From: Deltaproteobacteria bacterium
GTDB lineage: Bacteria; Myxococcota_A; Polyangia; Nannocystales; Nannocystaceae
Direction of reading: 5' to 3'
Assembly: GCA_947492135.1 (NCBI GenBank)
Contig: CANLQR010000011.1
Location: 1 to 37,020, forward strand
Length of the DNA stretch: 37,020 bases
Under the pieces are notes generated by a model. It was not told the DNA's origin. It did not search any database and saw only the letters and a program-made list of their open reading frames with translations. The position numbers were made by a program, and so were the translations under genes. This document shows, in pieces, positions 1,408-27,781 of this stretch (positions are counted from its first letter, which is position 1; the number at the start of each line of letters is the position of its first letter).

Positions 1408-4086
1408 CTATGGCTTCGCCAAGGGCTGCGGTCGGGTGGCTTGGGCGAGCAGCGACTCGATCTCGGTTCGCCGCCGTGGTGGCCCCGGCCGGGCATCGAC
1501 GATTCGCAGCGCAGCGTCGAGGGCGGCACGGGCTCGCTCGTGCGCGCCCCGGAGCAAGAAGACTCGGGCCATCCCCACCAGCGTGCTGGCGGTCTCGGGG
1601 TGATTCACGCCGAGACTGGCATCGCGCAGCTCGCCGGCCTGGGCGAAGCGTTCGAGCGCGGCGTCGTAGTGCCCCTGCTCGCGCTCGAGCCCGCCGAGTT
1701 GATCCAGCGCGTAGGCCAGCGACGGATGGCGAGGGCCGAGCGTGGCGCGGCCGATCTCGAGCGCACGCTCGAGCTGATGCCGGGCGTCATCGAACCGGCG
1801 GTCGAGTCGTGCCGACCAGCCGCGGTTGGTCGCGATCGTCGCGAGCAGCGCGGTGCGCTGGCCTTGGCTCGCCGCGAGGGTGAGCGACTCGGCGCGGACC
1901 AGCAGCGTTTCAGCGCCTGCCGAGTCGCCGTCGTCGAGGTGGATCAGTGCGAGGTTGTTGAGCACCGCCGCCACGTCGGGATGGCGATCGCCCCGCATCG
2001 CTTCGACGAGCGCGAGCACGCGGGTCCAGGTCGAGTGGGCGTCTCGATCGTGGCCCAGTGCCCGCTGGGCCGCACCCAGAGCCATCCACGCTGCACGCCG
2101 ATCGAGGTCCGACAATCCCGCGGTTGGCAGCGCCGCGAGCCTGCGCTGGGCTTGTTCGGCATCTCCGCGAGCGAGGGCCACCCGTGCCCGGACGATCTCT
2201 GCACGCTGCACGACGTCGGCTCGCACCTGGGCATCGGTCATGCGATCGACGAACGCATCGAAGTAGGCGAGGTGCAGCACCGCCTCGGCGACCCGCTCGT
2301 CGAGCAACGCCGCGTCCGCCTGATCGAGTACCAAGTAGACCACGGCATCATCGTGGCCGTCGGCCACCGCGAGCCTGACGGCCTCGAGACACAGCAGCTC
2401 GGCGGCCGAATGGTTGCCCGCGTCGAGCTCGAGATCGGCGAGCACCGACAGCGCTCGCGCGTGGACCCCGGGTAGCTGGTGTTGCTCGGCCAGTTCGACC
2501 GCGCGTTGGGCCGGCTCGCGGGCGTCACTGCGACCCAGGAGACGTCGGGTCAGCGATCGTTCGACCAGTTCGACCGCAAGGACCCAGGCTTGGTCCTGTG
2601 CGACGCTCGAGCGACTCGATCGCACCGCGAGACGATTGGTCAGCTTCGCCAGGGTCTCGACGTCGTCGCACGGCGCGAGCTCGGGCAACCGGGCCTCGAC
2701 GGCTTCGGGCTCGAGCGCCTCGGGCTGGGTGCTCGAGGCGTCGAAGCCCTGGCCGATCTCGTCGGTCAGTCCCATGAATCGACCCGCGACGCGATCGAGG
2801 CAGGCCATGCGCAGCCGCAGTGTGTCGTCCGACTGCTCGCCGCGCACGCGTGACGCCTCGCAGACCTCGCGGCGCTTGGTGGTATAGGCATCGGCGTAGC
2901 GATCGAGTGCTGCCACCACCGTCTCGCCGCGCCCAGCACCCAGCCCCACGCGCACCGACTCGCGCTGTTCATCGGTCCACAGCGTGGCGGGGTCGTCGGC
3001 TTGTTCACAGGGGTGGGGTGCGACGGCCAGCGCCGCGCGAAAACCCACGGTCAGCGCGAGTGCAGCGGCCGCCACTCCACCAGCGACGAGCCACCGGCGC
3101 CTGCGGGCATGCAGCACGCGGCCCAGTCCCGCGAGCAACACTTCCATCGAGGGATGGCGGGCGGCAGGATCAGGATCGAGACCTCGCCGCACCAGCTCGA
3201 TGAGCCCGCGTGGCAGCCCCGGGCGTGGAGAAGACAGCTCGAGGTTGCCGGCATGCACCGCGATCGACAGCGCCCCGAAGCTGCTGCCAACGAAGGGGCG
3301 GCGACCGAACAGCCCTTCGAACAGCGCGACGCAGAACCCAAATTGATCGGCTGCCGGTCCGATCTCCAGCCCATCGAACTGTTCGGGGGACATGTACGCG
3401 GGCGTACCCGCGACTGCAGGCGTCGCGCTGCCCCCGGACCCGCGGGGGTCGCTTTCTCCTGGGCATGTCGTGGAGGTTGGTCGGTGCCGAACCTCGCGCG
3501 AATAGGCCAGGCCAAAGTCCGCGATCCGTGGTCGCCCCGTGGCATCGGGTTTGCGCGCGTCGATCTCGACCAAGACGTTGTCGGGCTTGAAGTCGCGATG
3601 CACGAGGCCCACCGCGTGGGCCGCCGCGAGACCACGACCCACCTCGAGGAACATCGCGACCACCTCGGTCCACGGCCGTATCACGCCGCGCAACCAGCTC
3701 CGCAGCGTGCCGCCCTCGACGAACTCCATCGCGAGGAACACACGTCCTTGGTAGACGCCCACGTCGTAGATCGTCACCACGTTGGGATGGTTGAGCGTGG
3801 CGGCGGCGCGAGCTTCTTGCTCGAGGCGGTGTCGCCCGTCGTCGCGGTTTCCCACGCGCGCGTCGTCGACGAGCTTGATCGCGACCTTGCGGTCGAGTTG
3901 CGGATCCCATGCCGCGAACACGACACCCATGCCACCGCGGCCGACCTGTTCGATCAGCGCGTAGCGTCCGATGCGAACCGGCGCAGGGGTCGGAGCGCCG
4001 GACACCTCGTCGTCATCGAAGGTGTCGATCACGACCATCGGCGGTGGCACGTCCAGCGTCGTCGGAAGTCGGGGGTATGACGCCAT
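1408..4086 (-). CDS. Membrane Ser/Thr protein kinase with C-terminal TPR array
   Basis: A Hanks-type kinase phosphorylating Ser/Thr, with the catalytic domain in the cytoplasm. Numbered from the ATG at 4086, the glycine loop GRGGMG is at 49-54, the AIK lysine at about 71, HRDFKPDN at 163-170, DFG at 190-192 and the SPE motif at 233-235, so all catalytic residues are present. A single hydrophobic helix at about 332-356 follows an Arg-rich stretch. The remaining ~530 residues are helical and end in TPRs of the kinesin-light-chain type (HP..A..L..L repeats). By topology the TPR part would lie outside the membrane as a sensor or docking domain. A GTG at 4104 in the same frame directly follows the upstream stop; I prefer ATG 4086, which has GGGGTG just upstream. 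Probably co-transcribed with the lipoprotein gene at 4105-4578. Confidence 0.93.
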   Translation of the reverse strand: MASYPRLPTTLDVPPPMVVIDTFDDDEVSGAPTPAPVRIGRYALIEQVGRGGMGVVFAAWDPQLDRKVAIKLVDDARVGNRDDGRHRLEQEARAAATLNHPNVVTIYDVGVYQGRVFLAMEFVEGGTLRSWLRGVIRPWTEVVAMFLEVGRGLAAAHAVGLVHRDFKPDNVLVEIDARKPDATGRPRIADFGLAYSREVRHRPTSTTCPGESDPRGSGGSATPAVAGTPAYMSPEQFDGLEIGPAADQFGFCVALFEGLFGRRPFVGSSFGALSIAVHAGNLELSSPRPGLPRGLIELVRRGLDPDPAARHPSMEVLLAGLGRVLHARRRRWLVAGGVAAAALALTVGFRAALAVAPHPCEQADDPATLWTDEQRESVRVGLGAGRGETVVAALDRYADAYTTKRREVCEASRVRGEQSDDTLRLRMACLDRVAGRFMGLTDEIGQGFDASSTQPEALEPEAVEARLPELAPCDDVETLAKLTNRLAVRSSRSSVAQDQAWVLAVELVERSLTRRLLGRSDAREPAQRAVELAEQHQLPGVHARALSVLADLELDAGNHSAAELLCLEAVRLAVADGHDDAVVYLVLDQADAALLDERVAEAVLHLAYFDAFVDRMTDAQVRADVVQRAEIVRARVALARGDAEQAQRRLAALPTAGLSDLDRRAAWMALGAAQRALGHDRDAHSTWTRVLALVEAMRGDRHPDVAAVLNNLALIHLDDGDSAGAETLLVRAESLTLAASQGQRTALLATIATNRGWSARLDRRFDDARHQLERALEIGRATLGPRHPSLAYALDQLGGLEREQGHYDAALERFAQAGELRDASLGVNHPETASTLVGMARVFLLRGAHERARAALDAALRIVDARPGPPRRRTEIESLLAQATRPQPLAKP

Positions 4087-4817: not shown

Positions 4818-7632
4818 ATGCCCCATCGACCCTTCGAGGCCCGGCTTGCGCCCGAGCCAACGGCACCGACCAGCGAGGAGCTGGGTTCACGGCCGCCGGC
4901 TGCAGACGTCGTCGACCGGGATCGCGCCAAGGCCCTCGTTCAGGCCCGCCTGCTGGGCGAAGCCAACGTCGCGCCCACCACCGTCGGACGCTTCGCGGTG
5001 CTCGAGTGTTTCGCGCACGGCGGCATGGGCCTGTTGTACGCGGCCTATGATTCCGAGCTCGACCGCAGGGTCGCGCTCAAGGTCCTGCGCCCCGAGTACA
5101 GCGACGCGGCGGTACGCCGTCGCATCGTCCGCGAGGCCCCAGGCGATGGCGAAGCTGAACCATCCCAACGTCGCGCAGATCTACGAGGTCGGCGAGCAAG
5201 ATGGCCGGACCTTCATCGCCATGGAGTTCATTCGCGGCGATACCTTGAGCCGCTGGCGCCAGCGCCGGCAGCCGAGCTGGCGCGAGGTCCTGGCCGTGTA
5301 TCATCAGGCGGGGCTCGGCCTCGCGGCCGCCCATGCGGTCGGATTGGTGCACCGCGACTTCAAGCCGGACAACGCGATGATTGGCGACGATGGCCGGGTC
5401 CGCGTGCTCGACTTCGGCTTGGCGCGCGCGGAGGAACACGAGCCGACCGCTCCGGAGGAGCGTGTCGATCATCGCTTGGCACCAAGCGATGACGCATTGC
5501 GCACTCCACTGACCCGTGAAGGCTCGGTGATGGGCACGCCGGCGTACATGGCCCCCGAGCAGCACCTCGGCGAAACGGTCGACGCCAAGGCCGACCAGTT
5601 CAGCTTCTGTGTGGCGTTGTGGGAAGCGCTCTACTCTGGGCGACCGTACTCCGGCACGACTCGGACCGAGCTTGCTGCCGCCGTCACGCGCGGCAAGCTC
5701 AACGAGCCGCCCCGGGATACGCGAGTACCCCCGTGGGTGCGAGCGGTCGTCGAGCGCGGGCTCGCAGTGCGTCCAGAGAGTCGATTTCATGGCATGCAGG
5801 CGCTGCTCACCGCGTTGGGTCGCGATCCCACCCAGGCCCGTCGGCGAGTCGGCGCGGCGATCGCTGCGGTCGCGGCGGTCGGTCTGGGACTCGGCGCGTG
5901 GGGCCTGCATCGACGGTCGCAGGTGGCGGCGTGCGCAGAACAGGGCGAGCAGCTCTCGTCCTCGTGGACCGAGGACGCGCGCGCGGAGGTACGCGACGCA
6001 TTGCTTGCGGTTGGCCCGCGCTACGCGGCCTCCACCGTCGAGCGCGTGCTGCCTCGACTCGACCAGTGGGCCGACCAGTGGTCACGCATTCGCGAGCAGA
6101 ACTGCCTGGCGTCGCGCGTCACCGGCACGCGCACGGTGGAGCTCGAACGACTCGCTGTCGAGTGCCTCGACGAGCAACGCGAGACGTTCGACAGCTTGGC
6201 GGGCATGCTCGTTGCCGCGGACGAGCAGGTCCTCGAGAGCGCGGCTGGATCGATCGCGGCGCTGGGCGATCCCGAGGACTGCGTCGACGAGGCGAAGCTA
6301 CGACGGCGCGTGACGGACGATGGTCCCGCCGCGCGAGCGGCGACCAACGCGTGGCGTCGGCGACTGGCGTCGGCGTCGGCGGTGCTTGCGGCGAGTCGAT
6401 CGACCCAAGGTGTGGCGCTGATCGAAGCTGTGATCGAGGAGACCTCGGCGCCCGAGTTTCAGGTCGTGCATGCCGAGGCCCTCGCCCTGGCGGCAGCCGC
6501 CTACGCCGAGGTGGGTGATTCCAAACGCAGCCTCGAGCGCGGCGAGCAGGCCACGTTGCTCGCGATGCGGCAGGGCTCCGACGAGCTCGCGTTCGACACC
6601 ATCATGCGCATCGCCGAAGTCCTGCGCGAGCCCGCAAACCGCGATCGGCGGCGTTGGTGGATGTCGCTGGCGCAGATGCTGGTCGACCGCCTCGATGCGC
6701 AACAGGACCTTCGTGGCGCCGAGTTGCTCGCCACGCTCGCACTGGGCACCTCGGACGGCCGCGAGAGGCTGGCTCTCCATGAGCGAGCGCTGGCGATCCT
6801 CGAGTCGCGGTTGGGCTCGGACCACCCCATGGTCGGAACGACCATCAGCGACATCGGCGCTGCGTTGGAGAGCGTCGGCGCGCATGCCGAGGCCGAGGTC
6901 CACCATGAGCGCGGGCTGGCGATTCGCGAGCACGCGTTGGGCCCCGACCATCCGCACGTCGGCAACAGCCTGATCAACGTCGCCCACTCGCATGCGTCGC
7001 GGGGCGAGAATGCACAGGCGATCGCCTTGACCGAGCGCGCGCTCGGCATCTGGGAGCTTGGGCTCGGGCCCGGGCACAGCAACGTAGCGCTCGCGCTTGG
7101 CAACCTGGCAGGGTATGCGATGGCGCAGGACGATCATGCGCGGGCCAGGCCACTGCTCGAGCGGGCGATCGCCGTGATCGAGGCAGGTCGCGGCTCCGAT
7201 AGCCCCTATCTGGTCCAACATCTGGTGAACCTCGGCACCATTCACCAGCGTCTGGGCGAGTATGAGACCAGCGCGGCGTTGTTCGACCGTGCGGTCAGGC
7301 TGGCCGAGGGGTGGGGTGGCCGGTATGGAGTGGACGTGGCTACCCCGCTAGTCGGCGCGAGTGAGATCGCCATGCTTCGGGGACAGCCGGTCAAGGCGAT
7401 CGGCCTGCTCGAGCGCGCCGTCCTGATCTTCGATCGCAGCCAGAGTGACCGGCCAAACCGTGCGGCGGCTGGCTTCGCGCTCGCGCGCGCGCTATGGGAC
7501 GGGCACGGCGAGCGCGGGCGCGCGCAACGTCTCGCCGAGCAGGCAGCGGCGCAGTATCGCGAGCTTCCGGGCGACTGGAGCTACTGGATCACCGAGATCG
7601 AGGGCTGGCTCGCCGGTCACTCGCAGCCGTGA
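4818..7632 (+). pseudogene. Ser/Thr protein kinase with TPR array, split by a 1-base frameshift
   Basis: A paralogue in architecture of the kinase at 1408-4086. From ATG 4818 the frame encodes the N-lobe (FAHGGMGLLY, then ALKVL with the catalytic Lys) and continues to VRREA-like sequence. At CCCC 5137-5140 homology jumps to another frame, which continues QAMAKLNHPNV, HRDFKPDN, DFG, MAPE, a membrane helix (about 5848-5910) and kinesin-light-chain TPRs to 7632. Deleting one C restores a continuous ~937-residue kinase. As read, translation from 4818 stops at 5492 and yields only an N-lobe plus junk. The long downstream part is intact and has normal codon use, so the lesion is recent, a sequencing or assembly error, or recoded. 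The first Gly of the glycine loop is Ala here, which many kinases tolerate. Confidence 0.85.
5137..5140 (+). other. Frameshift site: C run with one extra base
   Basis: The bases GAGGCCCCAGGCG contain four C. With three C, the codons read GAG GCC CAG GCG ATG GCG, matching the expected kinase helix C region (EAQAMAKLNHPNV). With four, the kinase frame is lost. A run this short is not a classical slippage hot spot. Confidence 0.8.
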
Positions 7633-17311: not shown

Positions 17312-17908
17312 ATGGTGTCTGCCGCCCAAGCCGCGCGCACTGCCGCGTGGTCCGACCTGCAGGCGATCTCGGAGGCTGAGCGCTTCCATGAGGTCATCGC
17401 CGGCGAGCTCGTCCGCAAGGCGATGCCCAGTGGCCCGCATGGCCGCGCCCAGTCGAGACTGGCATCACGCATCGGCGGTCCGTACGATCGGCGGCCAGGC
17501 GGACGGCTGCCCGGCGGCTGGTGGCTCGTCACGGAGGTCGAGGTCCAGCTCGAGACCCACGAGATCTATCGCCCCGATGTTGCTGGGTGGCGCCGCGAGC
17601 GACTCGCGGAGCTGCCGAGCAAAGCGCCGATGACCGTCAGGCCCGACTGGGTCTGCGAGGTGCTCTCGGAGTCGAACGCACGCAACGATCTGGTGAAGAA
17701 GATGCGCGGCTACCACCGGGCCGAGTTGCCCCACTACTGGGTGGTCGATCCGGACCTCGAGACGCTGACCGTGTATCGCTGGACCGCCGACGGGTTCCTG
17801 CTGGTGCTCGCCGCGGAACGCTCGGAGACCGTGCGACCGGAGCCGTTCGACGGGATCGAGCTCCTCGTCGGCGCGCTCTTTGGCGACGACGAAGACGAGA
17901 GTCCGTGA
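17312..17908 (+). CDS. Uma2 family nuclease-like protein (DUF820)
   Basis: 198 residues. It matches the Uma2/DUF820 pattern of the PD-(D/E)xK superfamily: an early segment ERFHEVIAGELVRKAMPSGPHG, then IYRPDVAGW with the metal-binding Asp, VCEVLSESNARNDLVKKM with Glu and Lys, and YHRAELPHYWVVDPDLETLT. Length and motif order are normal. Uma2 proteins occur in many copies in cyanobacteria and myxobacteria, often near mobile or defence genes, but their function is not established. ATG 17312 begins the recognisable domain; the frame stays open upstream but has no coding character there. It lies 88 bases before the Hsp70-like gene, and a functional link to it is not implied. Confidence 0.88.
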   Translation: MVSAAQAARTAAWSDLQAISEAERFHEVIAGELVRKAMPSGPHGRAQSRLASRIGGPYDRRPGGRLPGGWWLVTEVEVQLETHEIYRPDVAGWRRERLAELPSKAPMTVRPDWVCEVLSESNARNDLVKKMRGYHRAELPHYWVVDPDLETLTVYRWTADGFLLVLAAERSETVRPEPFDGIELLVGALFGDDEDESP

Positions 17909-17996: not shown

Positions 17997-20459
17997 ATGA
18001 CTGGACGGCCCCTGTACGTCGGCATCGATCTCGGGACCACCAACTCGGCGGTCGCGGTCTTCGACGGCGAATCCACGCAGGTCGTGCGCAATGCCCAAGG
18101 CTCACCGTTGACGCCGTCGGTGGTCCGGATCGATGCCAAGGGCCGCGTGACAGTGGGCTCGGCGGCGCGACGATTCCTCGACCGCGACCCCGAGAACACG
18201 CGCAGTGAGTTCAAGCGCCTGATGGGCACCGAGCGCCCGCTGCCGTTTCGCGCCTCGGGTCGAGAACTCACCCCGCCCGAGCTCGCGGCAGAGATTCTCA
18301 AGGCGTTGCGTGGCGACGTCCGCGATCAGCTGGGCTCACTGCCGACCGCGGCCGTGATCTCGGTCCCTGCGCTGTTCGAACTCCCACAAAGTGCCGCCAC
18401 CGCCGAGGCGGCGCGGCTCGCCGGCTTCGACAAGGTCGAGCTGTTGCCCGAGCCGATCGCCTCCGCCCTCGCCGCCGGCTGGACCGCCGAGCACGGCGAC
18501 GGGCGGTGGTTGGTTTACGATCTCGGCGGCGGCACCTTCGATGTGTCGTTGCTGGAGACCGACGGCGGCTTTCTCCGCGTGGTCGGGCACGATGGCGACA
18601 ACTTCCTGGGCGGTCGCGACGTCGACTGGGCGATCGTCGACTGGGCGACCGCGATGATCGAACGCGAACACGGCGTGAAGATCCGCCGTGACAACCCCGA
18701 GCACGCGGCCGCGACCGCCCAGCTCAAGCACGCGGCGGAGGAGGCCAAGGTCGCCCTGAGCCGCGCGAACGAGGCCGTGCTCACCATGCCCGCGCCGCTC
18801 GAGATCGCGGGCCACGGCGCGTTCGATCCCGAACTCGTGCTGGGTCGAGCCACGCTGGAAGAGCTGCTCGCACCGCTGGTGGATCGATCGCTGGAGGTCT
18901 GTCGCCGCCTGCTCGCCGACCACCACACCGACCCCGGGCAGCTGGCGCGGATCGTGTTCGTCGGCGGACCCACCGTCACACCCTTGCTGCGCGCGCGCGT
19001 CGCCCAGGTGCTCGGTGCGCCGGTCGCCGACGGCCTCGATCCGATGACGCTGGTGGCCCAGGGCGCGGCGATCCATGCCGCGACGTCGGCGTTGGACGGT
19101 CGCGGCGCCGGGCCGCTGGTGCGTCGAGGGGCGCGTCTGTGGCTGCAGTTTCCGGCGGTGTGCACCGATCTCTCGCCCCACGTGGTGGGCCGCGTGGTCG
19201 AAGGTGGCAGTGGCCCGATGCCGGAGCGAATCCACCTGGTACGCGACGACGGCGGGTTCACCAGCGAAGTGACCACGCTCGACGCCGAGCATGCCTTCGT
19301 CGTCGCCGTCGAGCTGGTGTCGCGGCACGCGAACACCTTCACCATCGTCGCCCAAGATGCCGCCGGCGCGGTACTGGCGGTCGATCCGCCGACCGTCACC
19401 ATCGTGCAGGGGATGACGATCGGAGATCCACCGTTGTCACGCTCGATCGGCGTGGCTCTGGCCAGTGATCAGGTGCAGGTCTACTTCGAGCGCGGCACGC
19501 CATTGCCCGCGCGCCGTAGCTTCACGCATGTCACCGTCGAGAGCGTCGCGCGGGCCTCGGCGGACAGCGTTCTCAAGATTCCCATCGTTCAGGGCGAGCA
19601 CGATCGCGCGCATCTGTGCCGATTGGTCGGCACGCTCGAGATCCCGGGGCATGCGATCGCGCGGACTCTGCCCGCGGGATCCGACATCGAGCTGACCATC
19701 GAACTCGACCGGGGCGGCCGCATGTCGGCGCGGGCGTTGGTGCCGGCACTCGACCAGGTGTTCGAGCACGTCGCCCACCTGCTGGTGCCAGCGGCGGACA
19801 CCGAGGTGCTCGCGGCGAGTCTCGCAACGCTGCGCAAGCGGGTCGACGACCTCCGGGCCGACGCATTCCGTCGGGGCATGGCCCAGGTCCTCGGTACGCT
19901 CGAGCACGCCGAGCACGAGCTCGCCGAGGTCGCGCGCGACCTCGGCGCGGCGCTTGGTGGCAACGACGATGCCGGACAGCGGGCGCGGCGCAACTTGCTC
20001 GAGATCGACGCCGCCCTCGACGAGGTCGAGCAGAGCAAGCAATGGCCCGAACTCGAGCAGCGGGCAGTTCGTACGCTCACCTGGGCTGGCGGCCAGATCG
20101 CCTATCTGGGCACCGATCGCGAGCGTGCGCTGTTCGAGGACATCGCGCGTGCGATCGATGGCGCCCGCCAAGAGCGCAACGTCCGCGACCTTCAGCGCCA
20201 GCTTCGACTCGCCAATCAGCTCGGCGAGACCGCTTGGTATCGCGACCCCGATACCTGGCCGGCGCTGTTCGACGCTGCCAGCAGCCGCATCGACGCTGCG
20301 ACGGATCTGCCCAAGGCCCAGGCGCTGGTCCGCGAGGGCAGGGCGGCCAACGGACGCAATGACTACGCCGAGCTGCGACGGATCACCGAGAAACTGTGGA
20401 AGTTGCTTCCCCACGATCCATCCGCGCAGCGCCAGAGCTACGATTCCGGCGTGCGATGA
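17997..20459 (+). CDS. Divergent Hsp70 family chaperone
   Basis: 820 residues; DnaK has about 640. The ATPase domain is well kept: IDLGTTNS (10-17), YDLGGGTFDVS (174-184), EPIASALAAG (152-161) and VGGPTVTPLL (322-331, DnaK GGSTRxP). A segment at ~372-475 intervenes before a DnaK-like beta substrate-binding domain, recognisable by ERGTPLPARRSFTHV (498-512), IPIVQGEHDRA (528-538) and a LVGTLEIPG strand (543-551). From ~590 the protein is a long helical tail of ~230 residues, far beyond the DnaK lid, and lacks the EEVD-like end. ATP-driven binding of client proteins is expected in the cytoplasm. It is the first gene of a cluster and overlaps the J-like gene by four bases (ATGA). It is not the housekeeping DnaK, since grpE and dnaJ are absent. 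Confidence 0.92.
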   Translation: MTGRPLYVGIDLGTTNSAVAVFDGESTQVVRNAQGSPLTPSVVRIDAKGRVTVGSAARRFLDRDPENTRSEFKRLMGTERPLPFRASGRELTPPELAAEILKALRGDVRDQLGSLPTAAVISVPALFELPQSAATAEAARLAGFDKVELLPEPIASALAAGWTAEHGDGRWLVYDLGGGTFDVSLLETDGGFLRVVGHDGDNFLGGRDVDWAIVDWATAMIEREHGVKIRRDNPEHAAATAQLKHAAEEAKVALSRANEAVLTMPAPLEIAGHGAFDPELVLGRATLEELLAPLVDRSLEVCRRLLADHHTDPGQLARIVFVGGPTVTPLLRARVAQVLGAPVADGLDPMTLVAQGAAIHAATSALDGRGAGPLVRRGARLWLQFPAVCTDLSPHVVGRVVEGGSGPMPERIHLVRDDGGFTSEVTTLDAEHAFVVAVELVSRHANTFTIVAQDAAGAVLAVDPPTVTIVQGMTIGDPPLSRSIGVALASDQVQVYFERGTPLPARRSFTHVTVESVARASADSVLKIPIVQGEHDRAHLCRLVGTLEIPGHAIARTLPAGSDIELTIELDRGGRMSARALVPALDQVFEHVAHLLVPAADTEVLAASLATLRKRVDDLRADAFRRGMAQVLGTLEHAEHELAEVARDLGAALGGNDDAGQRARRNLLEIDAALDEVEQSKQWPELEQRAVRTLTWAGGQIAYLGTDRERALFEDIARAIDGARQERNVRDLQRQLRLANQLGETAWYRDPDTWPALFDAASSRIDAATDLPKAQALVREGRAANGRNDYAELRRITEKLWKLLPHDPSAQRQSYDSGVR

Positions 20460-20803
20460 ACGCTGTCGAGCGGTGGGCCGGTAATCCCTTCTTCGTGCTC
20501 GAGCTGGCGGTCACCGCCTCGCGAGCCGAGGTCGAGCGCGCCGGCCAAAAGTGGCTCGCGATGCTCGAACTCGGGCTGGCCCGCGCGGCGATCTACACCA
20601 CTCCGCTGGGTGTCCGCGCGCGAACACCCGAGCTCGTGCGTACCGCGATGGCCGAGCTGCGCGACCCCGAGCGACGTGCCGGGCACGAACCATGGTGCCT
20701 GCTCCAAGAGCCGGCTTCGGTGATCGATCCACCCGAGTCCACCGCCAGCGAGGGCGAGCCCGGCTTCGATGCGATGGGTCCGTTGCAGTGGAGTCGCCGA
20801 TGA
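20456..20803 (+). CDS. Small J-domain-like protein without HPD
   Basis: 115 residues. It begins NAVERWAGNPFFVLELAVTA and continues SRAEVERAGQKWLAML, which follows the helix I-II pattern of J domains (NPYxVLGL...AS.AEI..A). The end MAELRDPERRAGHEPW resembles the helix IV region (L.DP.RR..Y). The HPD tripeptide that triggers Hsp70 ATP hydrolysis is missing; the corresponding region reads GLARAAIYTTPLG. A J-like adaptor that binds but does not fully stimulate the adjacent Hsp70 is a reasonable inference. ATGA overlaps join it to the genes on both sides, suggesting fixed stoichiometry. The J-like label rests on weak similarity and synteny. Confidence 0.72.
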   Translation: MNAVERWAGNPFFVLELAVTASRAEVERAGQKWLAMLELGLARAAIYTTPLGVRARTPELVRTAMAELRDPERRAGHEPWCLLQEPASVIDPPESTASEGEPGFDAMGPLQWSRR

Positions 20804-22254
20804 TCGTGCGCGCGGTCGTGCTGACCCTCGGGTTGGGCTTCGCGTGGCTCGTGGGCGTCGCGAACCGCGAGGAAAGCCGACCGGGCTTCTTTGGGCTGGC
20901 GCAGTGGTTGGTGCTGTTCGGCCTGGCCGTGCTGGGCGGCTCGATGGTGCTGGACGGCGAGCTCGTGGGCCTGGCCGTCCTCACGGTGGTCGCAGGGTTG
21001 ACGTTCCCGTGGGCGGTCGCGCGCACCTGGCTGATCCCGCGGGGCCACTGGCGGTCGGCGTGGTTCCTGGTCCGCTCGAGCGCATGGACCTGGCACGACG
21101 ACAACCGTGGTGGTGCGCTCGTCGCCGCCGCCTGGGCGGCGGTGCGCGCAGGTGGACCGCCGGCTGCGCTGGCCTTCGTCGAGCGCCGCTGCGAGCGATC
21201 CGATTGTGGCGCCGCCCATCTGTTGGCCACCGGGCTCGTCGCCGCGGCGCGGGGCGACCTCGAAGCGGCCCGGCGCTGGATCGGGAGTCTGTGCGAGTTC
21301 ACGGGGAAAGCGTCCCCGCAGATGGCGCGACGCCTGGCGTTGCAGTGGATTGCCGCCGACGCTGCGACCCGAGGGGCGTGGTCGCAACTGGCCCAGCTCG
21401 ACGCCGATCGCGACGTCGATGCCGCCACCGCTGCGTTGATCGCGGTCGCCCGTCGGTTCGTCGGTGCGGCCCCGATTCCGACCGACGCCGAGCTCGAAAC
21501 CGCGTGGCGCAGTGTGCCGCAGCGGGCCCAGTTCCGAGCGCTGCTCGATCGCGCCCTGCAACACCAAGCCAGTCCAGCGGCGCCGAACTCCGTGGTGCGC
21601 GCGACCCCGGTCGTCGATCGGGATCCGCACCGAGCGGCGCTGGTGGCCCACGCGCACCTGCTGAGTCATCCCCGTCCCGATCGGGTCGAACTCGTGGCGG
21701 TCGCGCAGGCCTGGGATCGCGCGCTCGCGGATCAAGCGTTCACGCACCGCACCCAGCGTCGCGCGCTCGAGTTGGCCACGCGCGGCGACCCGATAGAGTC
21801 CCTGCGTGCGCGGCTCGACGCCGATCTGGTCGAGGTCGCTCGCACCGCTCGCATGGTACTGGGCGAGGATTCCGCGGTCGCGCGCGGCACCCTTGGCCGG
21901 GTGCGACGCACGCTCGGGCAGCGACTGCTCGACGAGCTCGAGGTCGTGGCCGATGCACTCAAGACCCGGGTCCGCACGCGGCGTGCTCTGGCGATCCACG
22001 AAGAATGGCGCGAGTACCTCACGCTGCGCGGCACCTACCAGAGCGCCGTAGCGATGACCGGGCCGGTGCTGCAGCGACTCGCGTTCCCGTGCGTCAACGA
22101 GTCGATCTGCGCACTCGCGGTGTGGCTATGGAACGACCGCAAGAACCGTGTTCACGCCCACCAGATGTTTCGTTGGTTGCTCAGCGAGGCGGAGAAATGC
22201 GAGGACGCCGAGGCCATCGCGCTGCACAGGCGCAACGTCGAATGCGGCCGCTGA
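20800..22254 (+). CDS. Membrane protein with large helical soluble domain
   Basis: 484 residues. The first ~75 residues hold three hydrophobic segments ([56 protein letters not shown]). The rest is soluble and helical, Ala/Arg/Leu-rich, with repeat-like pairs ([40 protein letters not shown]) that recall TPR or Sel1-type hairpins, though no clear family can be named. Cys residues at the soluble part ([16 protein letters not shown]) are few. The ATG at 20800 overlaps the stop of the J-like gene. Co-translation with the Hsp70 and J-like proteins suggests a membrane anchor or client-docking platform for them; this is inference. Confidence 0.75.
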
Positions 22255-22281
22255 ACAACGGCCAGAAAAAGGCGCTACCAT
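22252..22281 (+). promoter_or_regulatory. Candidate internal promoter before the SPFH pair
   Basis: TGAACA (22252-22257) and TACCAT (22276-22281) are separated by 18 bases, and the -10 box ends seven bases before ATG 22289. It overlaps the end of the preceding gene. Would give a leaderless SPFH transcript. Confidence 0.35.
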
Positions 22282-22288
22282 CCGCGCG

Positions 22289-23391
<1,103 letters not shown>

Positions 23392-23395
<4 letters not shown>

Positions 23396-24621
23396 GCAGT
23401 CCCATCCTACGCGTTGCTCGCGGCGTTGCCGTCACGTTGCTGTTGTTGTGGCTCATACCGCTGACCTGCACCACCACCATCGGTCCCGATCGCATCGGCG
23501 TACGCCAGAGCAATCTGTCCGGCGTCGGCGAGGCCGACCTCGAGCCGGGCTGGGCGCTGGCGGTTCCCGGCATTCACACCATCATCAGCCTGCCCAAGCG
23601 CTACGAGTATCTCGACTACACAGGTGACGCCGCTGGGCCGCAGCAGCCCCTGCAGATCCGCACCAAGGACAACAACATCGTCGTGCTCGACGTCTCGGTG
23701 CCGTATCGGATCCGCCCCACCGAGGCATGGTCGCTGGTCAAGACCGGCAACCACCAGCTCGACGCGAACAAGCGCCATCGATTCCAGCGGCTGGCCGAGG
23801 AGACCACCGTCAGCGTCCTGCGCGAGCGCCTGGCCGAGCTGACCTCGTCGGATTTCTATTCCACCGATCGTCGGCTTCAGGTGTCCGCAACGACCCTGCA
23901 GCAGCTCAACGAGAAGCTCGCCGAGCTGCACCTCGAGGCCTCTGCCGTGTTGATCCGCGCGGTTCAATTTCGTCCGGAGTACGAAAAGCAGCTGCAGCAG
24001 ATCCAGCTCAACGAGCAGAAAAAGCTGCTCGATGCGGCGGCGCAGACGGTCGCGAACGAGCAACAAAAGCTCGACAACTACACCCAGGGTACCAACGCCC
24101 TGGCCTCCGCCCGCGAGCAAAAGTGGATCGAGCGTCGCGCCAACCTCGAGCGTGCGTATCAGGTCGGCGTGATCCAGATCGGTGACGACACCAGCGCCGG
24201 TGGAGCCCGGGCCAAGCTCGCCGCGATGACCCCGGAGGTCCGGACCAAGCTGATCGAGGCCGCCACGGCCGATCTGCAGATGACCCCCGAGGAGGCCGCG
24301 AAGATCGACGATGCCTACCTGATGGGGGTTCAGAACGTCCAGGCCGAGACCCTGCAGTATGACCAGCGCATCCACGCCGAAGCCGACGGTGTGAGCGCGC
24401 GGCTCCAGGCCGAGGCGGACGCGATGGTGGCGAAGGTGCGCGGCGAATTCGATGCGAAGCGAAACGCCCTCCTCGCCACCGCAGCCGGGCGCGCGTTCGT
24501 GGCCTGGGAGGCGGCGCAGTACGTCAAGTTCGCACCCGAGCTGAACTTCGCCAGCGGCGACGGTGTACCCAGCGTGCTGCGGCTGCGCGAGTTCGCCCTG
24601 AAGTTCATGGGCGAGAAGTAG
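23392..24621 (+). CDS. SPFH/band-7 protein 2 (HflC-like partner)
   Basis: 409 residues. An N-terminal hydrophobic segment ([15 protein letters not shown], about 12-26) is followed by [20 protein letters not shown], the SPFH entry strand, and then [20 protein letters not shown]. The domain reaches ~205 ([16 protein letters not shown]). A coiled coil rich in Gln/Ala/Glu follows ([20 protein letters not shown]), then a helical end. The Cys at the end of the hydrophobic segment was considered as a lipobox (PLTC) but fits poorly. The two SPFH proteins are divergent in sequence, arguing for distinct roles in a joint complex. A strong hairpin follows the stop codon, marking the end of the transcription unit. 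Confidence 0.88.
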
Positions 24622-24629
24622 TGCTCGAG

Positions 24630-24650
24630 GGGGAGCGGCTTTCGCTCCCC
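24630..24650. terminator. GC-rich hairpin between convergent genes
   Basis: GGGGAGCG (24630-24637), loop GCTTT, CGCTCCCC (24643-24650): a perfect 8-bp stem eight bases after the SPFH 2 stop and 18 bases before the end of the opposite gene. No long T run follows on either strand (TTCGATTCGT on plus), so it may work bidirectionally with helper factors or as an mRNA end stabiliser. Confidence 0.65.
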
Positions 24651-24667
24651 TTCGATTCGTCGCGGCG

Positions 24668-27600
24668 CTAGCCCTCGGCCGCGCCGAGCGTGAGCTCGAA
24701 ACGCGTATGGAGGCTGCGGACCGGCGGCTTGACCGAGGTCGGTTCGTCGTCGAACGAGACCGAGGCGCGCATCGACGACAACCGCATCATCAGGGCGCCG
24801 ATCGGCGTGGTGCCAGCGATGGGCAGCTCCGGGAAGGCCGGCGTGATCTCGCTGCCGTGCAGCGGGTCGGTGACGCCTTCGGCGACCAGGGAATAGTCGG
24901 TGCGCCCCTCCGAGGTGACCGGGACCCCGCCGAAGTAGGCCAGGCTCAGTGCCCTGAACTTGGCGGCGTCGGTCGCGGTGCTCGGGTCGCCACGAACGAT
25001 GGCCTCGGCATACCGCCGGGCCGACGCCTGCCCGACCTGGGCCTGGCCCTGCAGCGCCCACAGCAAGGCAGTCCACGCCCCACCACCGCTGCGGACGTGA
25101 CCCTCGATCACGAACTGACTCGCGCCGCTGTCCGCCGCGGTCGGGCGGAGTTTTTCGTCGAGCAGCCGGTCGATCAGGGTCTCCAGCGTGCGCTGTTGCA
25201 GCGCAAACACGATCGCTCCGCCCGCCTGCGCGTAGTAGATCGCGATGGAGTCGGCGAACTTGCGCATGTCTTCGGGGGCGCTGCTGGCGATGCCGACGCG
25301 GACAATCGCAATCTCGCGGTGGGTCGCAAAGTTCTCCCACGTCACGTTGCCGGGTGCGACGTCGTTGACGAGCGCACGCAGTGCGGCGAGCGCGGCCACC
25401 AGGCCCGCGGTGCTGTTGATGTCAGCCGCAGCGAACACCGGCAACTTGCCCAGCGCCGCGGCGATGAGCGCGTCGTCTCCACCGCCGCGCAGCGCGTCGT
25501 CCAGCGGCACCTGCACCCGAGCGTCGAACACTGCCATGGATTCGCTCAGGCCGGCGCGGTCGAGCGTGCCGACCATCACCCACTCGCCCAGCCAGCCCAG
25601 GCCGAGGTCTGCCTTGCCGGAGAAGGACGTGGACAGGCGATCGAGGTCCCGCCGCAGTTCCGTGTCCTTGCCGACGCCCCAGACTGCCTGCAGGCCATCG
25701 TCGATCGCGGGGACAACGACGTGCTGGGCGCCCACGACCTGCTCGACGTCGCGATAGTTGGTACCCTCGATCAGCGGCAGCACGCGAACGTCGATCGAGG
25801 CGGCGTCGCCGTCGTCGTCGAGATCGATGCGCACGGCAATCGGGTCGATGAACTGCCGCCAGTAGTCCTGGTACTCGCGCGAGAAGTTCGCGTAGGCGTC
25901 GCGCTCGGCCGCGCTGACCTTGTCCACGTCTGGCAGATCGATGCGAGGGCGGAGCCCATCGGCGCGACCCCAGCTCGACCGCGCCGCGGCGCCGGGGGCG
26001 AACGCGATCGGCGTGCCGTCGCCATGGCGTAGCTCGGCCGCCGTGAGTACGTTGGCGGAGAGCATCTCGTCGGTCGAAGCCGGCGCGCGACCGTTGAGCC
26101 AGCCGTAGAGCAGCGCGGCGTGCCCGGGCGTCGAGAGATCGGCGAGTGCTTGCATGCGCCGGGCTTGCTGGATCTTCTGCTGCGGGCCGACCACCTGGGA
26201 GACGAAACGATCGCCGATGAATGCAAACGCGTCATGCTCGCCAGGATCACGCGCGAGCATGTAACGCAGGTCGGGCTCATCGGACAGCCGGGGCTTGGTG
26301 CCATCGATCGCATCGAGCACGCGCTTGCATGCGGCCTCACTGTTCGAGACCACCGCGAGGTTGCCGACCTGTGCGCGGTGCTGGCGGACCAGTCCCAGGG
26401 GGTCGACGTGAATCGCGATCACATGCCCGTTGTGAAGAACCTCGGTGCGGGTGACCCCATCGACTTTGGCCTGCCAGTCGGCCAGGTGGCGGGCAAGCTC
26501 GGTGTCGAAGATCGCCTGCGAGGCGACCTCGAAGATGAACGACACGTCGCTGCCGTCGCGGAGGTAGGGGTCGCTGCCCGTGATGGCCAACCGTGAGACC
26601 GCAGTGTGCCCCAGCGCCTTGGCCAGGCCGCTGCGACCCAACCCCAGCTCGCGCTGGTATCGCTCGGCGAGGTCGCGCACCAGCGGTCGCTCCTCCATCG
26701 CGTGGGCGACAGGCGTGATCCAGGTGCTGGCCTCATCCAGCACGCGCAGCATGTCGCGAATGTCCGAGAACCGCACGTACCAGAACTCGGCCGGGACCGC
26801 CGCGGCCAGCGGCTCGCCACTGATCGTCGTGGGCGTCGCTGCCGTCACCGTTAGCCCCGCGCGCATGGCCTCGAACGGATGGTCGGCCAGGGCCGGGGCC
26901 GCGAGTGTGGACAGGGCGATATCGCGGGGCCCATCGTTGCTCGTGATCCCGAGTCCCTTCTCGTACTGCAGGGCCTCCTGCAGCGAGGTCGCTGCAGTCG
27001 TCGTGTACATCAGCTGAGAAAGATCGGTCGTGGTCATGCGCGCGCGCGCGTCGGCCCTCGCGGGGCTCGAGGCAGCCGCTTTGCCGAGCAACGCCGCGTG
27101 AATGCGGCCGGCCGCAAAATGATGAAACGGCGTGGTCGGTGTGCTCGAGCCGTCGAGTAGCTGGGTCGACAGCGCCTCGGCGAACTGCCCGGCGAGCGCG
27201 GTGTCCTTGGTCGGCGTGCCGGTCGCAGTGAATGGCGCGGCGTACCACCGCTGGTTGCCGGCTTCGTAGCCGAGAAACCACAGCGTCCCGCTGAATGACG
27301 TCGAGAGCATCTTGCTGGGGGTCGGGCGACGCAACCAAACCCGAAGAACGTCGCCGTCGGTGCGCGTCACCACCAGGGCGTCGCTGCCGGCGTCGTCGAC
27401 CGCCGCCCGCATCAGCGTGCGCCCGTCGCCACGCGGCATCGCGAACTCCAGCGCGTAGTAGTCTTCGTCGCCGGCAAGGGTGCTGGTGATGGTTCCGGTG
27501 ACGGCGTCCATCGCCACGGGTCGCCAGACGCCGGCGCGAAGCTTCGCTGTCGGTCCGTCATCGCCGGTGGCCAACTGCGGGGACTGCGGTGACTGCGGGG

Positions 27601-27781
27601 CCCCCGGGATCTGCGAATCGCCCGCGGGCGCGGTCCCAGGGGGCAGTGCGGGCCCGGCGGGATTGGCTGGCGCAGGTGCGGCGGCCGGCTCGGCACATGC
27701 GAGCACGGCCAGCGCGAAGCACCCCGCGAGACTCGGTCGGGCAACCCTGCGGATGTTGGTCGACAGCATCCGAGCGAGCAT
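24668..27781 (-). CDS. Very large lipoprotein, possibly DUF3352-like
   Basis: 1037 residues. Signal peptide with LAVLAC (lipid-bearing Cys 29), then a ~55-residue Ala/Pro/Gly linker including PQSPQSPQ. The large domain contains AGNQRWYAAPF, FWYVRFSDIRDMLRVLDEAS, NLAVVSNSEAACKRVLDAID, and AFAFIGDRFVSQVVG. The last two resemble the pattern of DUF3352-type proteins (self-comparison of stored values, then a flexible strand), a family of unknown function; this match is by memory of the motif only. No catalytic site is evident. It would be an outer or inner membrane-anchored protein outside the cytoplasm. ATG 27781 and ATG 27769 are both possible starts; neither has a clear ribosome site. It converges on the SPFH cluster at a shared hairpin. 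Confidence 0.85.
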   Translation of the reverse strand: MLARMLSTNIRRVARPSLAGCFALAVLACAEPAAAPAPANPAGPALPPGTAPAGDSQIPGAPQSPQSPQLATGDDGPTAKLRAGVWRPVAMDAVTGTITSTLAGDEDYYALEFAMPRGDGRTLMRAAVDDAGSDALVVTRTDGDVLRVWLRRPTPSKMLSTSFSGTLWFLGYEAGNQRWYAAPFTATGTPTKDTALAGQFAEALSTQLLDGSSTPTTPFHHFAAGRIHAALLGKAAASSPARADARARMTTTDLSQLMYTTTAATSLQEALQYEKGLGITSNDGPRDIALSTLAAPALADHPFEAMRAGLTVTAATPTTISGEPLAAAVPAEFWYVRFSDIRDMLRVLDEASTWITPVAHAMEERPLVRDLAERYQRELGLGRSGLAKALGHTAVSRLAITGSDPYLRDGSDVSFIFEVASQAIFDTELARHLADWQAKVDGVTRTEVLHNGHVIAIHVDPLGLVRQHRAQVGNLAVVSNSEAACKRVLDAIDGTKPRLSDEPDLRYMLARDPGEHDAFAFIGDRFVSQVVGPQQKIQQARRMQALADLSTPGHAALLYGWLNGRAPASTDEMLSANVLTAAELRHGDGTPIAFAPGAAARSSWGRADGLRPRIDLPDVDKVSAAERDAYANFSREYQDYWRQFIDPIAVRIDLDDDGDAASIDVRVLPLIEGTNYRDVEQVVGAQHVVVPAIDDGLQAVWGVGKDTELRRDLDRLSTSFSGKADLGLGWLGEWVMVGTLDRAGLSESMAVFDARVQVPLDDALRGGGDDALIAAALGKLPVFAAADINSTAGLVAALAALRALVNDVAPGNVTWENFATHREIAIVRVGIASSAPEDMRKFADSIAIYYAQAGGAIVFALQQRTLETLIDRLLDEKLRPTAADSGASQFVIEGHVRSGGGAWTALLWALQGQAQVGQASARRYAEAIVRGDPSTATDAAKFRALSLAYFGGVPVTSEGRTDYSLVAEGVTDPLHGSEITPAFPELPIAGTTPIGALMMRLSSMRASVSFDDEPTSVKPPVRSLHTRFELTLGAAEG

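What the first reader, a model, noticed from the sequence alone, without database searches (positions are those of the whole stretch)
17997..24621. Hsp70 / J-like / membrane protein / two SPFH proteins: candidate undescribed membrane chaperone system
Five consecutive plus-strand genes are packed with three ATGA overlaps and one 34-base gap, and end at a strong hairpin. The set pairs an extended Hsp70 with a J-like protein lacking HPD, an anchored helical protein and two SPFH scaffold proteins. Known SPFH partners are proteases (HflKC-FtsH) or NfeD, neither of which is present. Inference: the membrane protein and SPFH ring recruit the Hsp70 to a membrane site for folding, unfolding or sorting of envelope proteins.
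Basis: partly seen in the sequence, partly recalled or inferred. Interest (0 to 1): 0.8.

Follow-up and report, generated by a model that had tools for sequence, protein, structure and literature searches.

The report
Rewired membrane-linked Hsp70 gene trio
Three of the five genes form a widespread myxobacterial chaperone trio (an Hsp70, a J-like partner and a membrane-anchored helical protein) in which the standard Hsp70/J-protein contact is missing on both sides, while the two membrane-scaffold (SPFH) genes beside them are a separate unit that is adjacent in only two related genomes.

Summary
The genes are as described: five packed plus-strand ORFs (17997-24621), three ATGA overlaps, one 34-base gap, a hairpin after the last. 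The five-gene system does not hold. Hsp70/J-like/membrane protein (MP) is a conserved trio across Myxococcota, in order in 42 of 60 named-genome loci fetched. An SPFH gene follows MP in 1 of 50 resolved loci, a same-genus genome with the window's arrangement. Elsewhere in the order the SPFH pair lies apart, and genomes without the trio have it too. Where Hsp70 stands alone, J and MP still sit together elsewhere in that genome (3 checked). One distant Hsp70 is followed by a flotillin instead of J-MP.

The trio is unusual. The Hsp70 keeps its ATPase residues (53/53), but residues that receive the J-domain HPD motif in DnaK are replaced (R167 to E 53/53, Q378 lost 53/53, linker leucines to Ser/Thr), and a ~100-residue all-beta domain separates ATPase and peptide-binding domains. 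The J-like partner has a J-type profile but no HPD (0/42). Ordinary Hsp70s of the same genome keep these residues. Best reading: a membrane-tethered Hsp70 module not using the canonical HPD trigger. Function is inferred, not shown.

The parts
17997..20459 (+). Hsp70 of a distinct family: ATPase domain (res 1-363), inserted all-beta domain (res ~366-475), substrate-binding beta domain (res ~484-592), long helical C-terminal region (res 602-817) ending in SGVR
   Evidence: Pfam HSP70 1.5e-81; AlphaFold2 mean pLDDT 85.8; 53-member alignment
19128..19436 (+). Inserted all-beta domain between ATPase and substrate-binding domains, used as family marker (model A5)
   Evidence: Found in 25 of 379 Myxococcota genomes sampled; no Pfam match over cut-off, no convincing PDB match; strands
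20456..20803 (+). J-like protein without HPD; YTTPLG at the HPD position
   Evidence: Profile-profile match to J domains with shuffled controls; 0 of 42 homologues have HPD
20800..22254 (+). Membrane protein (MP): N-terminal hydrophobic helices, then an all-helical domain of about 20 helices
   Evidence: AlphaFold2 mean pLDDT 92.2; no PDB match at E<=0.001; hydropathy of 38 homologues
22289..23395 (+). SPFH1; first gene of the separate SPFH pair
   Evidence: Pfam Band_7 9.9e-17; pair found apart from the trio
23392..24621 (+). SPFH2; second gene of the separate SPFH pair
   Evidence: Pfam Band_7 1.7e-23; in 23 of 29 genomes of the order
24626..24654 (+). Stem-loop between convergent genes, probable terminator without a T run
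   Evidence: Fold -31.6 kcal/mol, z -3.88; not listed by the T-run terminator scan

Best explanation
Two units stand side by side. Unit 1 is a three-gene module of Myxococcota: an Hsp70 with an intact ATPase, an HPD-less J-like protein and a membrane-anchored helical protein. Most likely MP anchors the J-like protein at the inner membrane and the two position the Hsp70 there, so that its substrate-binding domain acts on membrane or emerging proteins. Because the HPD motif, its acceptor residues and the hydrophobic linker are all altered, ATP hydrolysis is probably not triggered by the standard HPD-Arg-linker contact but by another surface, possibly involving the inserted beta domain or the J-MP pair. 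Unit 2 is a two-gene SPFH pair that came to lie downstream of unit 1 in one lineage. Shown: gene content, order, co-occurrence, residue changes. Predicted: folds and membrane anchor. Inferred: the J-MP-Hsp70 complex, its membrane site, the trigger and the clients.
For: Trio in order in 42 of 60 named-genome loci (Nannocystis, Enhygromyxa, Sorangium, Minicystis, Archangium, Kofleriaceae and a few other MAGs) and in most of 20 further loci, often with 4-base overlaps. SPFH within two genes of MP in 1 of 50 resolved loci. Where Hsp70 has no adjacent J-MP, J-MP sits together elsewhere in 3 genomes checked. Changes relative to E. coli DnaK: R167->E 53/53, N170->Q 49/53, Q378->Y/F/H/A 53/53, L391->S/T/C 53/53, D148->L/V/I 53/53, D481->G/A/S 53/53, with K70, P143, E171, T199 kept 53/53. 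Same-genome ordinary Hsp70s keep the canonical residues (some with N at 481 or E at 326). Contacts of HPD with L391, P419, R167 and Q378 are described in PMC8215388. MP has N-terminal hydrophobic segments and a helical body.
Against: Membrane insertion of MP and its topology are predictions. D393 is matched by a conserved Asp (51/53), so a degenerate linker may remain, and P419, which touches the HPD proline, is kept. J-MP pairs exist in genomes where this Hsp70 was not detected (G001) or without it nearby, so J-MP may have another role.
Confidence: 0.6

Rival explanations
1. One reading: all five proteins form one membrane chaperone system, with the SPFH ring as platform for the Hsp70.
For: Co-directional packing with a 34-base gap, kept (36 bases) in G026. 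An independent Hsp70 of the family (L172) is followed by a flotillin (Pfam Band_7 6.2e-28, Flot 9.5e-9) with a small possibly NfeD-like protein between.
Against: SPFH beside the trio only in one genus; separate in G027, G028 and about 15 other genomes. SPFH present without J-MP in G003, G006, G007. MP and SPFH2 occurrence not associated in the order (Fisher p 0.57); Hsp70-SPFH2 p 0.01, but relatedness is not corrected.
Confidence: 0.12
2. The Hsp70 works as an ordinary chaperone with one of the cell's HPD-containing DnaJ proteins; J-like and MP only tether or regulate it.
For: Seven matches to the DnaJ family in the same genome; ATPase catalytic residues and P419 intact.
Against: R167 and Q378, which bind the HPD aspartate, are replaced in 53 of 53, while same-genome Hsp70s keep them.
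Confidence: 0.18
3. The trio is a sensor or signalling device rather than a folding machine: ATP-state changes in the Hsp70 report on bound peptides to MP.
For: The inter-domain clamp residues are lost while ATPase residues are kept. Myxococcus xanthus non-canonical Hsp70s tested do not replace E. coli dnaK in growth tests (PMC8265645), though none is known to be of this family.
Against: The substrate-binding beta domain is retained and conserved; no signalling gene is a constant neighbour.
Confidence: 0.1

Closest known systems
HscC with DjlB/DjlC of E. coli (PMC8215388)
   Same: Specialised Hsp70 encoded near J proteins that are membrane-anchored; suggested to act at the plasma membrane.
   Different: DjlC stimulates HscC ATPase; here the J-like protein has no HPD, the anchor is a separate protein, and the Hsp70 carries an inserted beta domain.
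DnaK-DnaJ
   Same: ATPase domain (38-47% identity to same-genome Hsp70s over the ATPase domain or parts of it) and substrate-binding beta domain.
   Different: Lacks R167, Q378, D148, D481 and the VLLLD linker leucines; longer helical C-terminal region.
Tim16/Pam16 type J-like proteins (lead from own knowledge)
   Same: J fold without HPD, working beside a membrane machine.
   Different: No HPD-bearing partner J protein is encoded in the trio; relationship by descent not tested.
HflK/HflC with FtsH; SPFH with NfeD (PMC2636767)
   Same: Two SPFH genes in tandem, as HflK/HflC.
   Different: SPFH1/2 score far below the NCBIfam HflK cut-off (13.1 and 13.9 bits against 159.4); no NfeD or FtsH gene recognised beside them.
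Non-PRK00290 Hsp70s of myxobacteria (PMC8265645)
   Same: That survey reports extra non-canonical (cl35085 but not PRK00290) Hsp70s in all myxobacteria it examined.
   Different: The parts read do not describe an inserted domain, a J-like partner or a membrane protein; supplements not read.

Membership tests
Hsp70 superfamily | Actin-like ATPase domain with catalytic residues | tested here: met
   Pfam HSP70 1.5e-81; K70, P143, E171, T199 equivalents 53/53
Hsp70 superfamily | Substrate-binding beta domain | tested here: met
   phmmer of this part to DnaK chains E 0.01 (weak); alignment to E. coli DnaK and AF2 strands 484-592
Canonical DnaK | HPD-acceptor residues and hydrophobic interdomain linker | tested here: not met
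   R167, Q378 replaced 53/53; linker leucines mostly S/T; same-genome Hsp70s keep them
Canonical DnaK / HscA | Score over curated NCBIfam cut-off | tested here: not met
   288.3 bits against 822.55 (dnaK); 249.2 against 620 (HscA)
HscC | Family-specific deletions and DjlB/DjlC-type partner | tested here: inconclusive
   No HscC model among NCBIfam hits; no direct comparison with HscC was made
J-domain proteins | J-domain homology (helices I-III in register) | tested here: met
   hhalign probability 74.7 against shuffled maximum 17.9; structure not modelled
J-domain proteins | HPD motif | tested here: not met
   0 of 42
J-domain proteins | Stimulates Hsp70 ATPase | not testable with these tools
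   Biochemical assay needed
SPFH superfamily | Band_7 domain | tested here: met
   9.9e-17 and 1.7e-23
HflK/HflC | Score over family cut-off | tested here: not met
   Best 13.1 and 13.9 bits against 159.4
SPFH-NfeD operon | NfeD gene adjacent | tested here: inconclusive
   None recognised next to the pair in the loci read, but only by inspection; neighbours were not all domain-scanned

The most novel reading that the evidence does not exclude
An Hsp70 machine that has dispensed with the HPD-Arg-linker trigger on both sides and is driven instead by a non-catalytic J fold plus a membrane-anchored helical scaffold, with an inserted beta domain lying where the linker normally connects the two working domains.
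Probability: 0.4. Interest if true: 0.82.

Novelty: new variant of a known kind. Interest (0 to 1): 0.62.

Why it matters
The HPD contact is treated as the common trigger of Hsp70 cycles. A widespread family in which both sides of that contact are lost together, with the ATPase residues intact, would test how an Hsp70 can be controlled without it, and gives myxobacteria a membrane-linked chaperone to study. It is also a concrete case of a tidy five-gene operon that comparison splits into two units.

Tried and rejected
Defence system: no PADLOC match for any of the five proteins. SPFH pair as HflK/HflC: below cut-off. MP as a known fold: no PDB match at E<=0.001, TM scores about 0.2. Insert as a known domain: no Pfam match over cut-off and no convincing PDB match; I first took it for Ig-like by eye, which is not tested. 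HPD-less J as a chance match: shuffled, reversed and unrelated controls score lower. Separate histories of trio and SPFH by tree topology: SPFH data reject the alternatives (AU p 0.001 and 0.0005), but the trio data do not reject the SPFH topology (AU p 0.235), so a conflict is not shown. C-terminal SGVR as a docking tag tied to linkage: it is kept where J-MP is not adjacent, so no conclusion.

Full report
Observation. The five ORFs, three ATGA overlaps, 34-base gap and terminal hairpin are all in the sequence. Pfam recognises the Hsp70 and both SPFH proteins and nothing in the other two. The window is the whole of contig C11 of a 7.97 Mb genome. Its closest match among the named loci is a deltaproteobacterial MAG, Ga0077550, followed by Nannocystaceae.

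Two units, not one. Neighbourhoods of the homologues were read with a simple codon-based gene caller of my own plus BLAST or HMM labels. Hsp70-J-MP recurs in this order across Nannocystis, Enhygromyxa, Sorangium, Minicystis, Archangium, Kofleriaceae and other MAGs. The 60 loci came from a pattern search built on the Hsp70 itself, so they sample this family and are not a census. The SPFH pair is in 23 of 29 genomes of the order by the SPFH2 search, usually far from the trio; in G016, G017 and G020, where both lie on one contig, they are about 0.9-1.0 Mb apart. In G028 the SPFH pair sits on another contig with a different gene upstream of it, and the trio itself is split. Of 50 MP loci with a resolved downstream gene, one has SPFH downstream, and that is G026/L133. 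The pair also occurs in G003, G006 and G007, where J and MP were not found.

Co-occurrence. In the order, Hsp70 and J-like go together (19 of 19 Hsp70 genomes have J-like; Fisher p 0.0004), J and MP likewise (p 0.0003); MP and SPFH2 do not (p 0.57). These p-values ignore relatedness, and the Hsp70 set was compiled by hand. When Hsp70 has no adjacent J-MP, J-MP sits elsewhere in G399, G400 and G401 (in G399 the gene caller missed the J gene that the profile search found just before MP). G398 (L172) gave only a fragment at a contig end.

The Hsp70. AlphaFold2 gives an ATPase domain, an all-beta segment at about residues 379-471, a substrate-binding beta domain and a long helical end (mean pLDDT 85.8). 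Foldseek finds DnaK and relatives. Against E. coli DnaK, the ATPase residues are invariant, while residues of the J-domain contact and of the inter-domain clamp are replaced. Four same-genome Hsp70s checked as controls, plus one partial, keep them. The contacts used as yardstick are those summarised in PMC8215388. A linker-like stretch may persist just after the ATPase domain (a conserved Asp matches D393), but its leucines are mostly Ser or Thr. Placement of the linker residues depends on the alignment, since an insertion lies there; R167, Q378 and D481 lie in well-aligned stretches.

The J-like protein and MP. J-like matches J domains in register with controls; the HPD position reads Y-x-[ST]-P-x-G. 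MP has N-terminal hydrophobic helices and an all-helical body with no PDB match at E<=0.001. A second J-MP pair lies divergently beside a KAS III-type gene in nine loci, including the window's own genome, without this Hsp70 nearby (only the own-genome neighbour was checked with Pfam).

Histories within the genus. SPFH proteins of G028 are much closer to the window's (87-89%) than those of G027 (72-76%), while Hsp70 and MP show the reverse (G027 75 and 54%, G028 68 and 45%), and RpoB agrees with the trio (93.0 against 90.6%). Tree tests do not make this a proven conflict.

A caution on the SPFH link. L172 has this Hsp70 followed by a flotillin. It is one case in about 80 loci, of another SPFH subfamily, and without J-MP. 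The gene between them looks NfeD-like to me, but Pfam found nothing in it.

What is not known. No interaction, localisation or activity was measured. The mechanism is inference from residues, predicted folds and gene order. The paper library is open-access only, so an earlier description of this trio cannot be excluded.

Noticed in passing
L085:16770-18616 (own genome, G000:C40): Second J-like/MP pair without Hsp70, divergent from a KAS III gene; the same arrangement in eight other loci (L081, L082, L084, L086, L087, L088, L104, L105; in L088 only MP was called).
   Followed up: partly
L072:9160-11008, L074:9261-11351: J-MP pairs without this Hsp70 adjacent, beside a gene whose start resembles an acyl-CoA dehydrogenase (not domain-checked).
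   Followed up: no
L172:9343-11561: Hsp70 of this family followed by a small possibly NfeD-like protein (no Pfam hit) and a flotillin.
   Followed up: partly
17312-17908 (+): ORF of 198 aa just upstream of the Hsp70, Uma2-like by eye; not domain-checked.
   Followed up: no
24668-27781 (-): 1037-aa protein with no Pfam match, convergent with SPFH2; a related end lies beside SPFH in G028 (L115:7190-7435), so it may be the older neighbour of the SPFH pair.
   Followed up: partly
1408-4038 (-) and 5146-7632 (+): Two proteins with protein-kinase and TPR domains, near each other.
   Followed up: partly
Hsp70 C-terminus, about 20445-20456: Conserved SG[VL]R tail in most of the family, kept also where J-MP is not adjacent.
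   Followed up: partly
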